64,000 nt of DNA from assembly GCF_002163855.1 (NCBI RefSeq), contig NZ_CP019332.1, positions 1,095,145-1,159,144 of the forward strand. Direction: 5' to 3'. The notes beneath the pieces were generated by a model that saw only the letters and a list, made by a program, of their open reading frames with translations, ran no database searches and was not told where the DNA came from. The position numbers and the translations under genes were made by a program. Shown here piece by piece: positions 51,161-55,961 of the stretch (its first letter is position 1; every line of letters starts with the position of its first letter). The stretch is from Winogradskyella sp. PC-19 (GTDB lineage Bacteria; Bacteroidota; Bacteroidia; Flavobacteriales; Flavobacteriaceae).

Positions 51161-51313
51161 ATGAAGAAAACAGTTTTTAAATTTTTAGCTAAAGTCAACA
51201 AAGTAGTATTACCATCTTATACTAAGAGAAGACTTGACCTTACAAAAGCAACAAAATTACAATTGGCAATTTTTGGTTGGCGATTGTATGTTACTAAAAA
51301 TGCTTTGGATTAA
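51161..51313 (+). CDS. Conserved 50-aa small protein of Flavobacteriaceae
   Basis: A 50-aa basic protein, MKKTVFKFLAKVNKVVLPSY up to WRLYVTKNALD. I recall near-identical short proteins in many flavobacterial genomes, often wrongly labelled SsrA-binding protein; this is memory, not a search. It has an amphipathic N-terminus with lysines and a Trp near the end. Promoter directly upstream. Function unknown. Confidence 0.7.
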   Translation: MKKTVFKFLAKVNKVVLPSYTKRRLDLTKATKLQLAIFGWRLYVTKNALD

Positions 51314-51350: not shown

Positions 51351-51357
51351 AAATCAG

Positions 51358-51431
51358 TGACCTCGACAGGATTCAAACCTGTAACCTCTTGAGCCGTAAT
51401 CAAGTGCGCTATTCAGTTGCGCCACGAGGCC
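51358..51431 (-). tRNA. tRNA-Arg (anticodon ACG)
   Basis: A 74-nt cloverleaf on the minus strand: acceptor GGCCTCG/CGAGGTC, anticodon stem CTTGA/TCAAG around loop TTACGGC (anticodon ACG, reads CGN after deamination to inosine), T stem ACAGG/CCTGT with TTTGAAT loop. CCA is not encoded. A -7 element lies at 51448. Confidence 0.95.
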
Positions 51432-51506: not shown

Positions 51507-51514
51507 TATTTTTG
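51507..51514 (+). promoter_or_regulatory. -7 element giving a leaderless Crp/Fnr mRNA
   Basis: TATTTTTG ends only 4 bp before the ATG at 51519, so transcription would begin at or next to the start codon (leaderless message). Confidence 0.4.
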
Positions 51515-51518
51515 AAAC

Positions 51519-52154
51519 ATGATTTCAAAGAACACTCTTCAACCTTTTGGCTACTTATTTGATTCTGAATTAATAACAAAAATCTCAGAAGTAGCTCGCT
51601 TGGTATCATTTAAAAAAAATGATATCATCATAGATATAGGACAAAGCTTAGAACATATTCCCTTATTAATTAACGGAAATATTAAGGTATTGCGAGAAGA
51701 CAAAAATGGCGAGGAACTATTACTTTATGTTCTCGAATCTGGTGATACTTGCGCCATGTCACTAACGTGTTGTATGGCAAAATCCGCAAGCAAAATTAGA
51801 GCAGTAGCAGATGAAGACACTAGTGTTATAATGATACCTATATCATACATGCAACTATGGTTTAACACTAATCAAAGTTGGAGAAATTTTATTTTAGAAA
51901 GTTATCAAGAACGTTTTGATGAAATGCTAGAAACTATTGATTCTATTGCATTTCTTAAAATGGATGCGCGATTGTATAAATACCTGACTGACAAAGTAAA
52001 ACTGACCGCTTCAACCACATTAAATATTACACATCAAGAAATATCCGAAGATTTACACACCTCTAGAGTTGTAATTTCTAGACTTCTAAAACAAATTGAA
52101 AACGAAAAGAAAATAAAACTTGGACGGCATAAAATTGAAATACTTAAGTTTTAG
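51519..52154 (+). CDS. Crp/Fnr family regulator of the sulfur cluster
   Basis: A 211-aa regulator. N-terminal cyclic-nucleotide-binding-like barrel (about 15-120), long dimer helix (about 125-150), and winged HTH (about 165-211; LNITHQEISEDLHTSRVVIS, RLLKQIENEKKIKLGRHKIE). The effector-domain loop holds cysteines C78, C84 and C85 (DTCAMSLTCCMAK), which might sense persulfide or redox state (inference). Its stop overlaps the predicted operator before the YeeE genes. Two nearby promoters carry Crp-type sites at the class-II position. Confidence 0.92.
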   Translation: MISKNTLQPFGYLFDSELITKISEVARLVSFKKNDIIIDIGQSLEHIPLLINGNIKVLREDKNGEELLLYVLESGDTCAMSLTCCMAKSASKIRAVADEDTSVIMIPISYMQLWFNTNQSWRNFILESYQERFDEMLETIDSIAFLKMDARLYKYLTDKVKLTASTTLNITHQEISEDLHTSRVVISRLLKQIENEKKIKLGRHKIEILKF

Positions 52155-52196
52155 TAACTTTTGTAACATTAACTAAGCTTCAGAATTATATTTTTG
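52153..52196 (+). promoter_or_regulatory. Crp-type site and promoter of the YeeE operon
   Basis: GTAAC-TTTT-GTAAC (52154-52167), a degenerate copy of the GTGAC-N4-GTCAC site at 53995. Its centre (52160.5) lies 28.5 bp before the -7 box TATTTTTG (52189-52196), the same distance as in the other promoter. Confidence 0.6.
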
Positions 52197-52212
52197 CTTA
52201 AAAATTATATTC

Positions 52213-52770
52213 ATGGAATACCTTTTACAACCTTGGCCTTGGTATATATCAGGACCACTTATCGCTCTAATAATGTTTACACTTCTGTATTTCGGAAGAA
52301 CTTTTGGAATGTCCTCTAATCTTAGAACACTATGTGCCATTGGTGGTGCAGGTAAAAAAGTCACCTTTTTTAAGTTTGATTGGAAAGCGCAACGCTGGAA
52401 CTTAATTGTTGTTCTTGGGGCAATTTTTGGTGGATTTATTGCACATTATTTTTTATCAAATCCAACTGATATTAATTTAAGCCAAGAAACTATTGCAGAC
52501 TTGACTGCCTTAGGATTTAATGATGCTGGCAAAACACTTTTACCTCCAGAATTATTTAGTTGGGAAAATATTTTTACAGTAAAAGGAATGCTTATCCTAA
52601 TTATTGGTGGTTTTCTTGTTGGCTTCGGAACACGTTATGCTGGTGGTTGTACTTCTGGCCATGCAATTACTGGTTTGAGTAGTTTACAATTACCGTCTTT
52701 AATCGCAGTAATTGGCTTTTTTATTGGCGGTTTAATTATGATTCATCTTATTTATCCAATCCTATTTTAA
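52213..52770 (+). CDS. YeeE/YedE family sulfur transporter, first half
   Basis: A 185-aa membrane protein with about four or five helices. The family motif RYAGGCTSGHAITGLSSLQ (about 142-160) contains the conserved Cys thought to bind thiosulfate or another sulfane sulfur, as in E. coli TsuA (YeeE). Together with the next gene it makes a two-subunit transporter. Its start is 3 bp before the next gene. Confidence 0.9.
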   Translation: MEYLLQPWPWYISGPLIALIMFTLLYFGRTFGMSSNLRTLCAIGGAGKKVTFFKFDWKAQRWNLIVVLGAIFGGFIAHYFLSNPTDINLSQETIADLTALGFNDAGKTLLPPELFSWENIFTVKGMLILIIGGFLVGFGTRYAGGCTSGHAITGLSSLQLPSLIAVIGFFIGGLIMIHLIYPILF

Positions 52771-52772
52771 TT

Positions 52773-53189
52773 ATGAGTAAGTATATAAAATTCTTTATAG
52801 TAGGTATCATTTTTGGAATTGTTTTGGTAAAATCCGAGGCTGTTTCATGGTATAGGATTTTTGAAATGTTTAAATTTCAATCTTTCCATATGTATGGTAT
52901 TATTGGTTCGGCAGTAACAACAGGTATTGTATTATTGTTAATCTCAAAAAAATTAAAAATAAAAACAATTGAAGACCAATATTTAAAAGTCCCAAAAAAA
53001 GCTGATGGTTTTAGAAGATATATCATTGGAGGAAGCATTTTTGGTCTTGGTTGGGCACTTGCAGGAGCATGTCCTGGCCCAATGTATATTTTATTGGGTA
53101 CTGGAGTATTTTCAATATTAATAGTTATTGCAGCAGCAATTCTTGGCACATATACATATGGTGTCTTAAAAGATAAATTACCGCATTAA
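52773..53189 (+). CDS. YeeE/YedE family sulfur transporter, second half (DUF6691)
   Basis: A 138-aa membrane protein with four helices. It holds the second Cys motif LAGACPGPMYILLGTG (about 92-107) and the start FFIVGIIFGIVLVKSEAVSW typical of this half. Its stop codon overlaps the ATG of the TauE gene (one base shared). Expected to pair with the preceding protein. Confidence 0.9.
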   Translation: MSKYIKFFIVGIIFGIVLVKSEAVSWYRIFEMFKFQSFHMYGIIGSAVTTGIVLLLISKKLKIKTIEDQYLKVPKKADGFRRYIIGGSIFGLGWALAGACPGPMYILLGTGVFSILIVIAAAILGTYTYGVLKDKLPH

Positions 53190-53989
53190 TGGATAATCAT
53201 GAGATATTAGGTTATACGGCTTCGGTAATTGCAGGAGTGATAATGGGTTTAATTGGCGGCGGTGGTTCTATATTGACTGTTCCAATTCTTGTATATTTAT
53301 TAGCATTTAATCCAATCGTTGCAACAGCCTATTCCCTATTTGTTGTAGGTGCAACATCTACTATTGGTGCTTTACAGAGTTTAAGACGTGGACTTGTAGA
53401 TTATAAAGCAGCAATTATTTTTGCTATCCCATCGATTATTGGTGTATATCTTACCCGTAAGTTTTTAGTTCCTGCATTACCAGATGTCATGTTTGTAATT
53501 GGTGACTTTAAAGTTACAAGTGGCATTTTTATAATGCTAGTTTTTGCCATTGTAATTTTGTTGGCAAGTATATCAATGATTACTAAAAAAGTAAACAGCA
53601 TTGATGATGGTGAGTCAGATATAAGTTATAATACTTTTATAGTATTAATATTAGGTTTAGCTACAGGAATCATTAGTGGTTTTGTCGGAGCAGGCGGCGG
53701 ATTTTTAAACATTCCTGTTTTGGTATTCTTTGTAAGACTACCCATGAAAAAGGCAATTGGAACATCTTTATTTATAATTTCTATTAAATCTTTGATAGGT
53801 TTCCTTGGTGATATCGAACATATAGATATCGATTGGGTATTTCTCTTAAAGTTTACCTTTTTCTCGATAATTGGAATACTTATAGGTATATATCTTTCTA
53901 AATTTATCAATGGCAAAAAACTAAAAAAAGGCTTTGGCTTTTTTACATTAGTTATGGGTACTTATATCATCCTTAAAGAACTGTTTTGA
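53189..53989 (+). CDS. Sulfite exporter TauE/SafE family protein
   Basis: A 266-aa protein of about eight helices. Motif GLIGGGGSILTVPILVYLL (about 20-38) is repeated in the second half as GFVGAGGGFLNIPVLVFF (about 163-180), the internal duplication of TauE/SafE. It probably exports sulfite or another product of persulfide oxidation. Translationally coupled to the YeeE half upstream. Confidence 0.9.
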   Translation: MDNHEILGYTASVIAGVIMGLIGGGGSILTVPILVYLLAFNPIVATAYSLFVVGATSTIGALQSLRRGLVDYKAAIIFAIPSIIGVYLTRKFLVPALPDVMFVIGDFKVTSGIFIMLVFAIVILLASISMITKKVNSIDDGESDISYNTFIVLILGLATGIISGFVGAGGGFLNIPVLVFFVRLPMKKAIGTSLFIISIKSLIGFLGDIEHIDIDWVFLLKFTFFSIIGILIGIYLSKFINGKKLKKGFGFFTLVMGTYIILKELF

Positions 53990-53992
53990 GCT

Positions 53993-54037
53993 ATGTGACA
54001 AATGTCACATTCCAAAACAACAAGTTTATTAAATTTG
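53993..54037 (+). promoter_or_regulatory. Palindromic Crp-type operator and promoter of the persulfide dioxygenase gene
   Basis: TGTGA-N6-TCACA (53994-54009), a perfect palindrome (ATGTGAC-AAAT-GTCACAT) identical to the classic CRP half-sites. The -7 element TAAATTTG starts at 54030, 28.5 bp from the centre. If transcription starts about 6 bp after the box, the site is centred near -41.5 (class II activator position). Confidence 0.85.
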
Positions 54038-54057
54038 TATTACGAAAAAATTAAAAC

Positions 54058-55464
54058 ATGAAAATAGAACAATTATATACAGGTTGCCTCGCACAAGGTG
54101 CCTATTACATAGAATCCGAAGGAGAAGTTGCTATTATTGACCCTTTAAGAGAGACACAGCAATACGTAGATAAAGTTGAAGCTAATAATGCTAAAATCAA
54201 ATATATTTTTGAAACTCACTTTCACGCTGATTTTGTTTCAGGTCATGTTGATTTAGCAAAAAAAACTGGTGCGACTATCGTTTTTGGACCAGGAGCAAGC
54301 ACCGAATACGACATACATTCTGCATCAGATAATGAAGAATTTAAACTTGGTAAACTAACAATTAAAGTACTTCATACACCAGGTCACACTTTAGAATCAT
54401 CGACTTATTTATTGATTGACGAAAACGGGAAAGATCATGCGATTTTTTCTGGTGACACTTTATTTTTAGGAGATGTAGGACGTCCTGATTTGGCCATAAA
54501 GTCAGACTTAACAAAAGAAGATTTAGCCGCAATGCTTTTTGATTCTTTACGTAACAAAATCATGCCTCTAGCTGATGATGTTATCGTATATCCTGCTCAT
54601 GGTGCAGGTTCTGCTTGCGGAAAAAACTTAAGCAAAGAAACTGTTGGTCTATTGGGCGAGCAGAAAAAAACAAATTATGCTTTACGTCCTGACATGACTA
54701 AAGCAGAATTTGTAGAAGAAGTTTTGGATGGTATTGCACCACCTCCGCAATATTTTGCTAAAAATGCAATGATGAATAAAACAGGCTATTCAACTTTTGA
54801 AGATGTTTTGAAGAAAGGAGATTCTCCACTAAACCCAGAAGAGTTTGAGGCCTTAGCAAACCACGAATCCGCTTTAGTTTTAGATGTACGCCCTCAATCT
54901 GAATTTATAAAAAGTCATATCCCAAATTCAATTTTCATTGGATTAAATGGAGGATTTGCACCTTGGGTTGGCGCCTTAATAACTGATATAAAACAACCGA
55001 TAATTTTAGTTGCGCCTAACGGCAAGGAAGCAGAAGCCGTAACACGTTTATCTCGTGTAGGTTACGATAACACATTAGGTTATTTACAAGGCGGAATAGA
55101 TGCCTGGATAGGCTCAGGAAGAGATATAGAAACATTAGAATCTATTTCTGCAGATACATTTGCCGAACGCGTAAAATCAGGTGACATTAATATTTTGGAC
55201 GTACGCAAAGACGGAGAATATACGGCATCACATCTTGAAGATGCTCAACATTTTGCATTAGACTTTATCAACGACAATATGAATGAAGTTGATAAAAACA
55301 AAACTTATCACATCCATTGTGCAGGCGGTTATCGTTCTGTTATCGCTGCTTCTATACTAAAAGCTAGAGGTTACAATAATTTGGTTGATGTTGCTGGTGG
55401 TTTTGGAGCTATTAAAAAAACAGATTTACCGACGACAGACTTTGTCTGTCCTTCAACTCTGTAA
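54058..55464 (+). CDS. CstB-like persulfide dioxygenase-rhodanese fusion
   Basis: A 468-aa three-domain enzyme. The N-terminal metallo-beta-lactamase fold (about 1-250) has the ETHE1-type iron ligands THFHADF (H54, H56, D58), H63, LHTPGHT, and SGDTLFLGDVGRPDL. The middle rhodanese-like domain (about 262-365; VLDVRPQSEF) has lost the catalytic Cys (APNGKEA in its place). The C-terminal rhodanese (about 368-465) is active-type, with HCAGGYRS. This is the order of Staphylococcus aureus CstB, which turns persulfide into thiosulfate. Cytosolic. Driven by its own Crp-type promoter. Confidence 0.93.
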   Translation: MKIEQLYTGCLAQGAYYIESEGEVAIIDPLRETQQYVDKVEANNAKIKYIFETHFHADFVSGHVDLAKKTGATIVFGPGASTEYDIHSASDNEEFKLGKLTIKVLHTPGHTLESSTYLLIDENGKDHAIFSGDTLFLGDVGRPDLAIKSDLTKEDLAAMLFDSLRNKIMPLADDVIVYPAHGAGSACGKNLSKETVGLLGEQKKTNYALRPDMTKAEFVEEVLDGIAPPPQYFAKNAMMNKTGYSTFEDVLKKGDSPLNPEEFEALANHESALVLDVRPQSEFIKSHIPNSIFIGLNGGFAPWVGALITDIKQPIILVAPNGKEAEAVTRLSRVGYDNTLGYLQGGIDAWIGSGRDIETLESISADTFAERVKSGDINILDVRKDGEYTASHLEDAQHFALDFINDNMNEVDKNKTYHIHCAGGYRSVIAASILKARGYNNLVDVAGGFGAIKKTDLPTTDFVCPSTL

Positions 55465-55478
55465 ACAAATTTATTATT

Positions 55479-55685
55479 ATGAAAAAAAATGTAAGTAACA
55501 TTGACAAAGGACTTAGGGTTCTTATCGCTTTGATTATAACACTACTATATTATTTTAATATTATTGATGACACACTTGCATACATATTAATGGGACTTGC
55601 GATTGTTTTACTGATAACTGGTCTAATTAATTTTTGTCCTTTATACAAGATTCTAGGTGTTAGTACGTGTAAAATAAAAAACTAA
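55479..55685 (+). CDS. DUF2892 (YgaP-like) membrane protein
   Basis: A 68-aa protein with two membrane helices (about 10-28, 33-50) and the end INFCPLYKILGVSTCKIK, where two Cys flank a GxS turn. This is the DUF2892 transmembrane part of YgaP-type rhodaneses, here as a separate gene next to a rhodanese. May dimerise in the membrane and deliver or accept sulfane sulfur (inference). Confidence 0.88.
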   Translation: MKKNVSNIDKGLRVLIALIITLLYYFNIIDDTLAYILMGLAIVLLITGLINFCPLYKILGVSTCKIKN

Positions 55686-55688
55686 AAG

Positions 55689-55961
55689 ATGGAAAAAAAA
55701 GCTTTAAAAATTCAGAATCTGAAGTGTCATGGTTGTGCAAACACGATTATAAAGCAACTTTTAAAATTAGATGGTATTTCGGATGTAACTGTTAATAACG
55801 ATACAGATGAAGTTTTTTTAAATGTTGAAACTGACAATCAATTGGAGTTGGTAACTAAAAAGCTTTCTGACTTGGGTTATCCATTAGTTAGCCAAAACAA
55901 CTCTTTACCAAAAAAAGCTAAATCTTACGTGAGTTGTGCTGTTGGTAGAATGAGTAAATAA
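55689..55961 (+). CDS. Heavy-metal-associated (HMA) domain protein
   Basis: A 90-aa protein with the HMA fold (about 4-68): LKIQNLKCHGCANTIIKQLLKL, with a CxxC site (C14, C17) expected to bind Cu(I) or a similar soft metal. It has an added C-terminal tail (KSYVSCAVGRMSK) with a third cysteine. Last gene of the sulfur cluster, 3 bp after DUF2892. A metallochaperone or a thiol carrier for sulfane sulfur are both possible. Confidence 0.88.
   Translation: MEKKALKIQNLKCHGCANTIIKQLLKLDGISDVTVNNDTDEVFLNVETDNQLELVTKKLSDLGYPLVSQNNSLPKKAKSYVSCAVGRMSK

What the first reader, a model, noticed from the sequence alone, without database searches (positions are those of the whole stretch)
51519..54058. Two promoters of the sulfur cluster carry Crp-type sites at the same distance from the -7 box
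Upstream of the persulfide dioxygenase gene is a perfect palindrome TGTGA-N6-TCACA centred at 54001.5. Its -7 box TAAATTTG starts at 54030. Upstream of the YeeE operon is GTAAC-N4-GTAAC centred at 52160.5, with the -7 box TATTTTTG starting at 52189. Both spacings are 28.5 bp, which puts the sites near -41.5, the class II activator position. The first gene of the cluster codes for a Crp/Fnr protein. The sites and spacings are seen in the sequence; the link to that protein is inferred.
Basis: partly seen in the sequence, partly recalled or inferred. Interest (0 to 1): 0.85.

Follow-up and report, generated by a model that had tools for sequence, protein, structure and literature searches.

The report
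Crp-type switch for sulfur detoxification genes
Two promoters of a sulfur-detoxification gene cluster in a flavobacterium carry the same kind of DNA docking site at the same distance from the start signal, a layout kept in many related bacteria next to a regulator gene that may sense reactive sulfur through conserved cysteines.

Summary
Both sites and -7 boxes are at the stated coordinates, 28.5 bp apart, and are the only GTnAC-N4-GTnAC matches in 64 kb. Site 1 is not a perfect dyad; relatives fit GTnAY-N4-RTnAC. With the flavobacterial box at -12 to -5 (PMC9723704, passages) the centre is -40.5/-41.5, the class II position. The site goes with the neighbouring Crp/Fnr gene: 57 of 70 pdo regions beside it, 12 of 30 without it nearby, 0 of 13 in genomes lacking a homolog. 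The regulator lacks CRP's cAMP residues and has C78, C84 and C85 in the former cAMP pocket (151, 143 and 142 of 151 sequences). Most likely it is a Crp/Fnr activator of persulfide detoxification. Binding, activation and sulfur sensing are untested. Review passages read here name no Crp/Fnr persulfide sensor, though Acinetobacter Crp is reported persulfidated.

The parts
51507..51514 (+). -7 box TATTTTTG of the crp/fnr gene itself, 4 nt before the ATG (predicted leaderless start); no GTnAC-type site upstream
   Evidence: 51 of 55 loci also have exactly 4 nt
51519..52154 (+). crp/fnr-family regulator gene, 211 aa (cNMP_binding + HTH_Crp_2)
51750..51752 (+). codon of C78 (Cys in 151 of 151 sequences)
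51768..51773 (+). codons of C84 and C85 (Cys in 143 and 142 of 151)
52032..52103 (+). helix-turn-helix, recognition helix SRVVISRLLK (R183, V184, S187, R188)
   Evidence: predicted helices 172-178 and 183-195
52154..52167 (+). proposed activator site 1, GTAACTTTTGTAAC, centre 52160.5
52189..52196 (+). -7 box TATTTTTG of the yeeE operon; predicted +1 at 52201
   Evidence: box position from PMC9723704 (passage)
52213..52770 (+). yeeE-like gene 1 (Sulf_transp)
52773..53189 (+). yeeE/yedE-like gene 2 (DUF6691/Sulf_transp)
53189..53989 (+). tauE-like gene (TauE/SafE)
53993..54010 (+). proposed activator site 2, ATGTGACA-AA-TGTCACAT, centre 54001.5
54030..54037 (+). -7 box TAAATTTG of the persulfide dioxygenase gene; predicted +1 at 54042
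54058..55464 (+). persulfide dioxygenase-type gene (metallo-beta-lactamase + two rhodanese stretches), 468 aa
   Evidence: enzyme name inferred from domains
55479..55685 (+). YgaP-like transmembrane protein gene
55689..55961 (+). heavy-metal-associated (HMA) domain protein gene

Best explanation
The two sites are operators of the Crp/Fnr-family protein encoded by the first gene of the cluster. It binds GTnAY-N4-RTnAC as a dimer centred at -40.5/-41.5 and activates the main RNA polymerase from the class II position, switching on sulfur-compound transport (yeeE pair), TauE and the persulfide dioxygenase. Its own gene is made from a separate promoter without a site, with a leaderless start. The signal is most likely reactive (sulfane) sulfur read by C78 with C84/C85, which sit where CRP holds cAMP. 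Shown by sequence: sites, spacing, conservation, co-occurrence, recognition-helix and cysteine conservation, missing cAMP residues. Inferred: binding, activation rather than repression, start sites, and the sulfur signal.
For: Site and spacing kept: 39 of 50 yeeE1 and 43 of 48 pdo regions with a box, shuffles about 0.006; 153 of 157 pairs pooled, although the leader between box and start codon varies widely. In 920,522 bases of 80 loci, both strands, only 7 further site/box pairs (27.5-30.5 bp allowed) occur outside the promoters already counted, three of them right after crp. In 27 more distant loci 14 have a site near the crp stop, 10 of the 14 at 28.5/29.5, before yeeE, a CoA-disulfide reductase-rhodanese, SulP, rhodanese-like or cytochrome c genes among others. 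Site in 57 of 70 pdo regions with crp in the fetched stretch of about 3.4 kb, 0 of 13 in genomes with no crp homolog at E 1e-35 (Fisher p 2e-8, too small because rows are related). R183, S187, R188 in 151 of 151; R180 of CRP goes with G3 of the site, and Pro at 181 with GTAACnnnnGTTAC, in PMC1274295 (passages). Box at -12 to -5: PMC9723704 (passages).
Against: No binding, expression or 5'-end data exist here. Twelve of 30 pdo regions without crp in the fetched stretch also have the site; three of these have crp about 5 kb upstream, several have a homolog elsewhere in the genome. Thirteen of the 70 with crp lack it. A Winogradskyella subgroup (L013, L021, L029, L041) keeps crp but has neither site. 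Nineteen of 62 yeeE1 and 12 of 58 pdo regions have no relaxed site, and 13 of 27 distant loci have none behind crp. The same promoter type precedes genes outside the cluster, some with no evident tie to sulfur. Thirteen crp-bearing genomes of similar distance gave 29 promoter-model hits in 10 of 13 genomes against 7 in 6 of 13 without crp, a weaker contrast than with close relatives (56 in 13 of 13). Val at the 181 position is not among the cases in the PMC1274295 passages, where Ser and Gln gave other motifs. A missing -33 TTG does not mark these promoters in particular.
Confidence: 0.75

Rival explanations
1. Another Crp/Fnr paralog of the genome, for example an oxygen- or energy-responsive one, uses these sites, and the neighbouring gene regulates something else.
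For: The four genomes tested hold four or five proteins above the HTH_Crp_2 cut-off. A paralog present in all four has R and P at the CRP 180/181 positions (SRPT...), and Pro at 181 goes with GTAACnnnnGTTAC in HcpR2 (PMC1274295 passages). Promoters of the same type precede genes outside the cluster.
Against: The site is absent from pdo in 13 of 13 genomes lacking this regulator, and promoter-model hits are few there. That paralog has T or I, not R, at the 185 position; the FNR-type paralog has T/E at 180/181 (aligned by eye). The site often lies right behind the crp stop codon, also in distant loci. Not all paralog helices were read, and whether the 13 genomes keep the other paralogs was not checked.
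Confidence: 0.12
2. The cluster regulator binds these sites as a repressor that is released by sulfur, as BigR does on a yeeE-yedE-pdo2 operon in Acinetobacter.
For: BigR and SqrR are repressors of comparable genes (PMC7315123, PMC9774590; passages); a site at -41 could also block polymerase.
Against: A rigid 28.5/29.5 bp spacing (153 of 157 pairs) fits activator contacts better than blocking, which should tolerate more positions (inference). The -33 test was inconclusive.
Confidence: 0.12
3. The protein is an activator of these promoters but senses NO, nitrite, oxidants or oxygen rather than sulfur species.
For: HcpR, a Crp/Fnr relative with a similar motif, answers nitrosative stress (PMC1274295 passages); PgRsp, a Porphyromonas Crp/Fnr protein modelled on the E. 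rectale structure, binds heme and acts in redox stress (PMC6955866 passages). Outside-cluster targets include peroxiredoxin, thioredoxin-like and cytochrome bd genes, which fit general thiol stress as well as sulfide.
Against: Gene neighbours are often sulfur genes even in distant loci. No hcp gene was seen among the targets fetched, but hcp was not searched for.
Confidence: 0.25
4. The inverted repeats are RNA hairpins, terminators or chance matches.
For: Site 2 is a strong 8-bp dyad just after the tauE stop; the strict site alone is only mildly enriched in the window.
Against: No terminator-like element at either place; site 1 is not self-complementary over its length; spacing to the -7 box is fixed across the family.
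Confidence: 0.01

Closest known systems
E. coli CRP at class II promoters
   Same: Fold, dyad site of the TGTGA type, site centre near -41.5 (CRP facts recalled)
   Different: No E72, R82 or S83 equivalents for cAMP (alignment to 4bh9); V instead of E at the 181 position; -7 box TAnnTTTG
HcpR2 of Clostridium, Bacteroides and others (PMC1274295, passages)
   Same: Crp/Fnr family, consensus GTAACnnnnGTTAC
   Different: HcpR2 mostly has Pro at 181 and regulates hcp; here V (140 of 151) and sulfur genes
BigR/SqrR (ArsR family) and FisR persulfide regulators (PMC7315123, PMC9774590, passages)
   Same: Control of yeeE-yedE-pdo2 or pdo/sqr-type genes; conserved cysteines
   Different: Unrelated protein families; BigR and SqrR are repressors, FisR a sigma-54 activator
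Acinetobacter baumannii Crp (PMC7315123, passages)
   Different: A close CRP/Vfr relative; the effect of persulfidation is not known, and the passages read do not place it in a sulfur cluster
EUBREC_1222 of Eubacterium rectale (3dv8)
   Same: Nearest solved relative by sequence (E 1e-25) with cysteines aligned to C78 and C84
   Different: Entry title gives no function; E at the 181 position

Membership tests
Class II Crp/Fnr-dependent promoter | Dyad site centred near -41.5 | tested here: met
   28.5/29.5 bp to the box in 153 of 157 pairs, i.e. -40.5/-41.5 with the box at -12 to -5; start sites themselves not mapped
Class II Crp/Fnr-dependent promoter | Activation depends on the regulator | not testable with these tools
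   needs expression data
Crp/Fnr superfamily | cNMP-type sensor domain plus Crp HTH | tested here: met
   PF00027 and PF13545 above cut-off; predicted fold matches CRP-type and NtcA structures
cAMP-binding CRP | E72, R82, S83 cAMP contacts (residue roles recalled) | tested here: not met
   aligned positions are a gap, S89 and A90
FNR [4Fe-4S] sensors | N-terminal cysteine ligands (recalled) | tested here: not met
   the window protein's only cysteines are C78, C84, C85
HcpR2 | Pro at CRP position 181 | tested here: not met
   V184; V 140, E 10, T 1 of 151
HcpR2 | GTAACnnnnGTTAC-type site | tested here: inconclusive
   GTnAY-N4-RTnAC contains it but is broader
Persulfide-sensing regulator | Conserved cysteines that form polysulfide bridges | tested here: inconclusive
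   conservation met; chemistry not testable here

The most novel reading that the evidence does not exclude
A Crp/Fnr protein in which the cAMP pocket has become a cysteine switch for sulfane sulfur is the main sulfide-response regulator of many Bacteroidota. It drives persulfide dioxygenase and sulfur transport, and in Winogradskyella also thioredoxin-reductase-like, peroxiredoxin, thioredoxin-like and cytochrome bd genes, through one rigid class II promoter design.
Probability: 0.4. Interest if true: 0.8.

Novelty: new variant of a known kind. Interest (0 to 1): 0.6.

Why it matters
The sulfane-sulfur regulators named in the review passages read (CstR, SqrR/BigR/PigS, FisR, OxyR, LasR, OhrR) include no Crp/Fnr protein; the nearest hint is that Acinetobacter Crp is persulfidated, with unknown effect. 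No sulfide regulator of Bacteroidota turned up in my searches. A defined operator with fixed geometry, a regulator gene beside it and three conserved cysteines make the question directly testable. The sites also give a concrete class II layout for the TAnnTTTG promoters of this phylum.

Tried and rejected
Hairpin or terminator reading: not supported. A missing -33 TTG as a sign of activator dependence: TTG ending 15-21 nt before the box in 8 of 82 Winogradskyella-group site promoters, 4 of 49 family site promoters and 4 of 10 crp-less pdo promoters with a box, but also only 1 of 53 crp promoters, so inconclusive. Autoregulation: no site seen upstream of crp in the listing read by eye. A link between E/V at 184 and the base at position 5 of the site: too few E184 loci with sites to judge. 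Of the 35 outside-cluster hits fetched, 27 have a relaxed site and an exact box at 28.5/29.5, but they were found with a model that contains the spacing, so this is not independent. The relaxed site pattern was widened after seeing the first listing. In the pooled count 3 of 100 family pdo starts were dropped because the match began after residue 3. The 13 crp-less genomes are those of the 46 without a homolog whose pdo place was listed with its start (G080 lacked it); four of the 13 have genomes under 2 Mb. The 13 crp-bearing genomes and the 13 were chosen by me, by identity of their persulfide dioxygenase. In the whole-genome profile searches the tool scored 150 candidates per genome. Papers: PMC9723704, PMC1274295, PMC6955866, PMC7315123 and PMC9774590 were seen as passages; all others only as search listings.
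Full report
Check of the observation. Site 2 is an 18-bp dyad with 8-bp arms. Site 1 fits GTnAC-N4-GTnAC but is not a perfect dyad. These are the only two matches of that pattern in 64 kb; 0.43 are expected and 7 of 100 shuffles reach two, so the pattern alone is weak and the position is what counts.

The cluster. The genes are crp/fnr, two YeeE-type proteins, TauE, a persulfide dioxygenase-type protein (metallo-beta-lactamase plus rhodanese), a YgaP-like membrane protein and an HMA protein. A search with the regulator found 141 relatives and kept 80 loci, mostly Winogradskyella, most of which hold the same genes in the same order. The window's own genome is not held.

Upstream of yeeE1, 62 regions were examined: 50 have an exact TAnnTTTG box and 39 of these have a relaxed site (GTnAY-N4-RTnAC) at 28.5 or 29.5 bp. 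Upstream of pdo, 58 regions: 48 have a box and 43 of these have the site there. A thousand shuffles of the sequence before the box give a mean of 0.006-0.007 and at most 1. I then took 100 pdo neighbourhoods from a sample of 249 genomes of the family, of which 225 have the enzyme (E 1e-80) and 203 a regulator homolog (E 1e-35). Pooled over 259 regions, 183 have a relaxed site, and 153 of 157 site/box pairs lie at 28.5 (74) or 29.5 (79). In F. psychrophilum the box spans -12 to -5 (PMC9723704, passage), so the centres are -40.5 and -41.5. The predicted start sites here are 52201 and 54042, giving leaders of 12 and 16 nt.

The link to the regulator. Among the 100 pdo regions, 57 of 70 with crp in the fetched stretch have a relaxed site within 200 bp, 41 of them with an exact box at the right distance. 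Of 30 without, 12 have the site (10 with the box), and three of those 12 have crp about 5 kb upstream. In 13 genomes with pdo but no crp homolog at E 1e-35 (8 from the 100, 5 fetched), none has it (57 of 70 against 0 of 13, Fisher p 2e-8; rows are related, so this p is too small). G020 and G153 look like close relatives at this locus: G020, which still has a homolog elsewhere, keeps GTAACAATTATCAC; G153, which has none, shows ATAACATATATCAT at the same place. A sequence profile of 82 promoters finds the two window promoters at E 7e-11 and 1e-8, as it must since both are among the 82. In whole genomes it gives 56 hits in 13 of 13 crp-bearing relatives and 7 hits in 6 of 13 crp-less genomes, but 29 hits in 10 of 13 crp-bearing genomes of similar distance. 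The profile was trained mainly on Winogradskyella, which may explain part of the first contrast.

Distant loci. In 27 loci outside the core group, 14 have a site between 12 bp before and 250 bp after the crp stop, 10 of them with the box at 28.5/29.5. The next genes include yeeE (Lutibacter and a relative), a CoA-disulfide reductase with rhodanese domains (L067), a SulP permease (L068), rhodanese-like genes (L064, L080; by their match to the rhodanese part of the window's dioxygenase) and a cytochrome c gene (L053). The other 13 loci have no such site.

The regulator. It belongs to the Crp/Fnr fold (model pLDDT 88). R183, S187 and R188, at the CRP 180, 184 and 185 positions, are R, S and R in 151 of 151 sequences; the 181 position is V in 140, E in 10, T in 1. 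PMC1274295 (passages) ties R180 to G3 of the site and Pro at 181 to GTAACnnnnGTTAC, with Ser or Gln giving other motifs; Val is not in those passages. Against E. coli CRP (4bh9) C78 falls on I70 and C84/C85 on E77/E78; R82 and S83 are replaced and E72 has no partner. Cys is found at 78 in 151 of 151, at 84 in 143, at 85 in 142; in seven sequences (six Lutibacter, one relative) both 84 and 85 are lost and a cysteine appears at 91. These cysteines and the sulfur gene neighbours are the basis for the sulfur-sensing proposal; it is an inference.

Other targets. Of the promoter-profile hits outside the cluster in 15 genomes I fetched 35. Recurrent ones lie before a thioredoxin-reductase-like FAD protein and DUF983; others before cytochrome bd subunit I, peroxiredoxin, a thioredoxin-like protein, an ArsR gene, uridine kinase and a cytochrome c (one member of each typed, the rest recognised by the same start of the protein). 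Several fit a sulfide or thiol stress response; uridine kinase, DUF983 and some untyped genes do not obviously, and a few hits have no clear gene. The motif is thus shared, and paralogs cannot be ruled out for these.

Comparison with the known. Class II activation by Crp/Fnr proteins and TGTGA- or GTAAC-type sites are known. In Acinetobacter a yeeE-yedE-pdo2 operon is under BigR, an ArsR-family persulfide sensor, and the same paper reports a Crp protein as highly persulfidated with unknown effect (PMC7315123, passages). The regulators named in the review passages read (PMC9774590) are of other families. Searches for a Crp/Fnr sulfur regulator in this setting listed none; only open-licence papers are held and most were seen as listings.

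Limits. No binding, start-site or expression data. Most sequences are relatives, and the relaxed pattern was set after seeing the first listing. One Winogradskyella subgroup keeps the regulator but has neither site, which I cannot explain.

Noticed in passing
51507-51521: The crp/fnr gene has its -7 box exactly 4 nt before the ATG, so its mRNA should start at the A of the start codon (leaderless); 51 of 55 loci examined have the same 4 nt, 2 have 3, 2 have no exact box.
   Followed up: partly
51161-51313: 50-aa open frame (MKKTVFKFLAKVNKVVLPSY...) with no Pfam match; tblastn finds it in 29 of 80 loci, the eight rows printed at 71-78% identity.
   Followed up: partly
51357-51431 (-): tRNA-Arg (acg) just upstream of the cluster; the same sequence precedes crp in many Winogradskyella loci (by eye).
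   Followed up: no
L013, L021, L029, L041: A Winogradskyella subgroup keeps crp with all three cysteines and R183/V184/S187/R188, but has no site and no exact -7 box before yeeE and pdo, with a shorter crp-yeeE gap.
   Followed up: partly
L056-L057, L059-L063 (Lutibacter and a relative): Sites become GTGAT-N4-ATCAC in six of seven, and the regulator swaps C84/C85 for a cysteine at 91 while keeping C78; five of these loci hold a second crp-like gene behind yeeE.
   Followed up: partly
L111, L112, L129 and others: Promoters of the same design before a thioredoxin-reductase-like FAD protein, DUF983 and cytochrome bd genes in Winogradskyella genomes.
   Followed up: partly
L054 12184-12197 and L065 near 12587: In Bizionia a dyad with a box at 29.5 lies before a fatty-acid-hydroxylase-family gene (OlsE-like); in L054 the same dyad, read on the other strand, lies upstream of a separate yeeE gene.
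   Followed up: no
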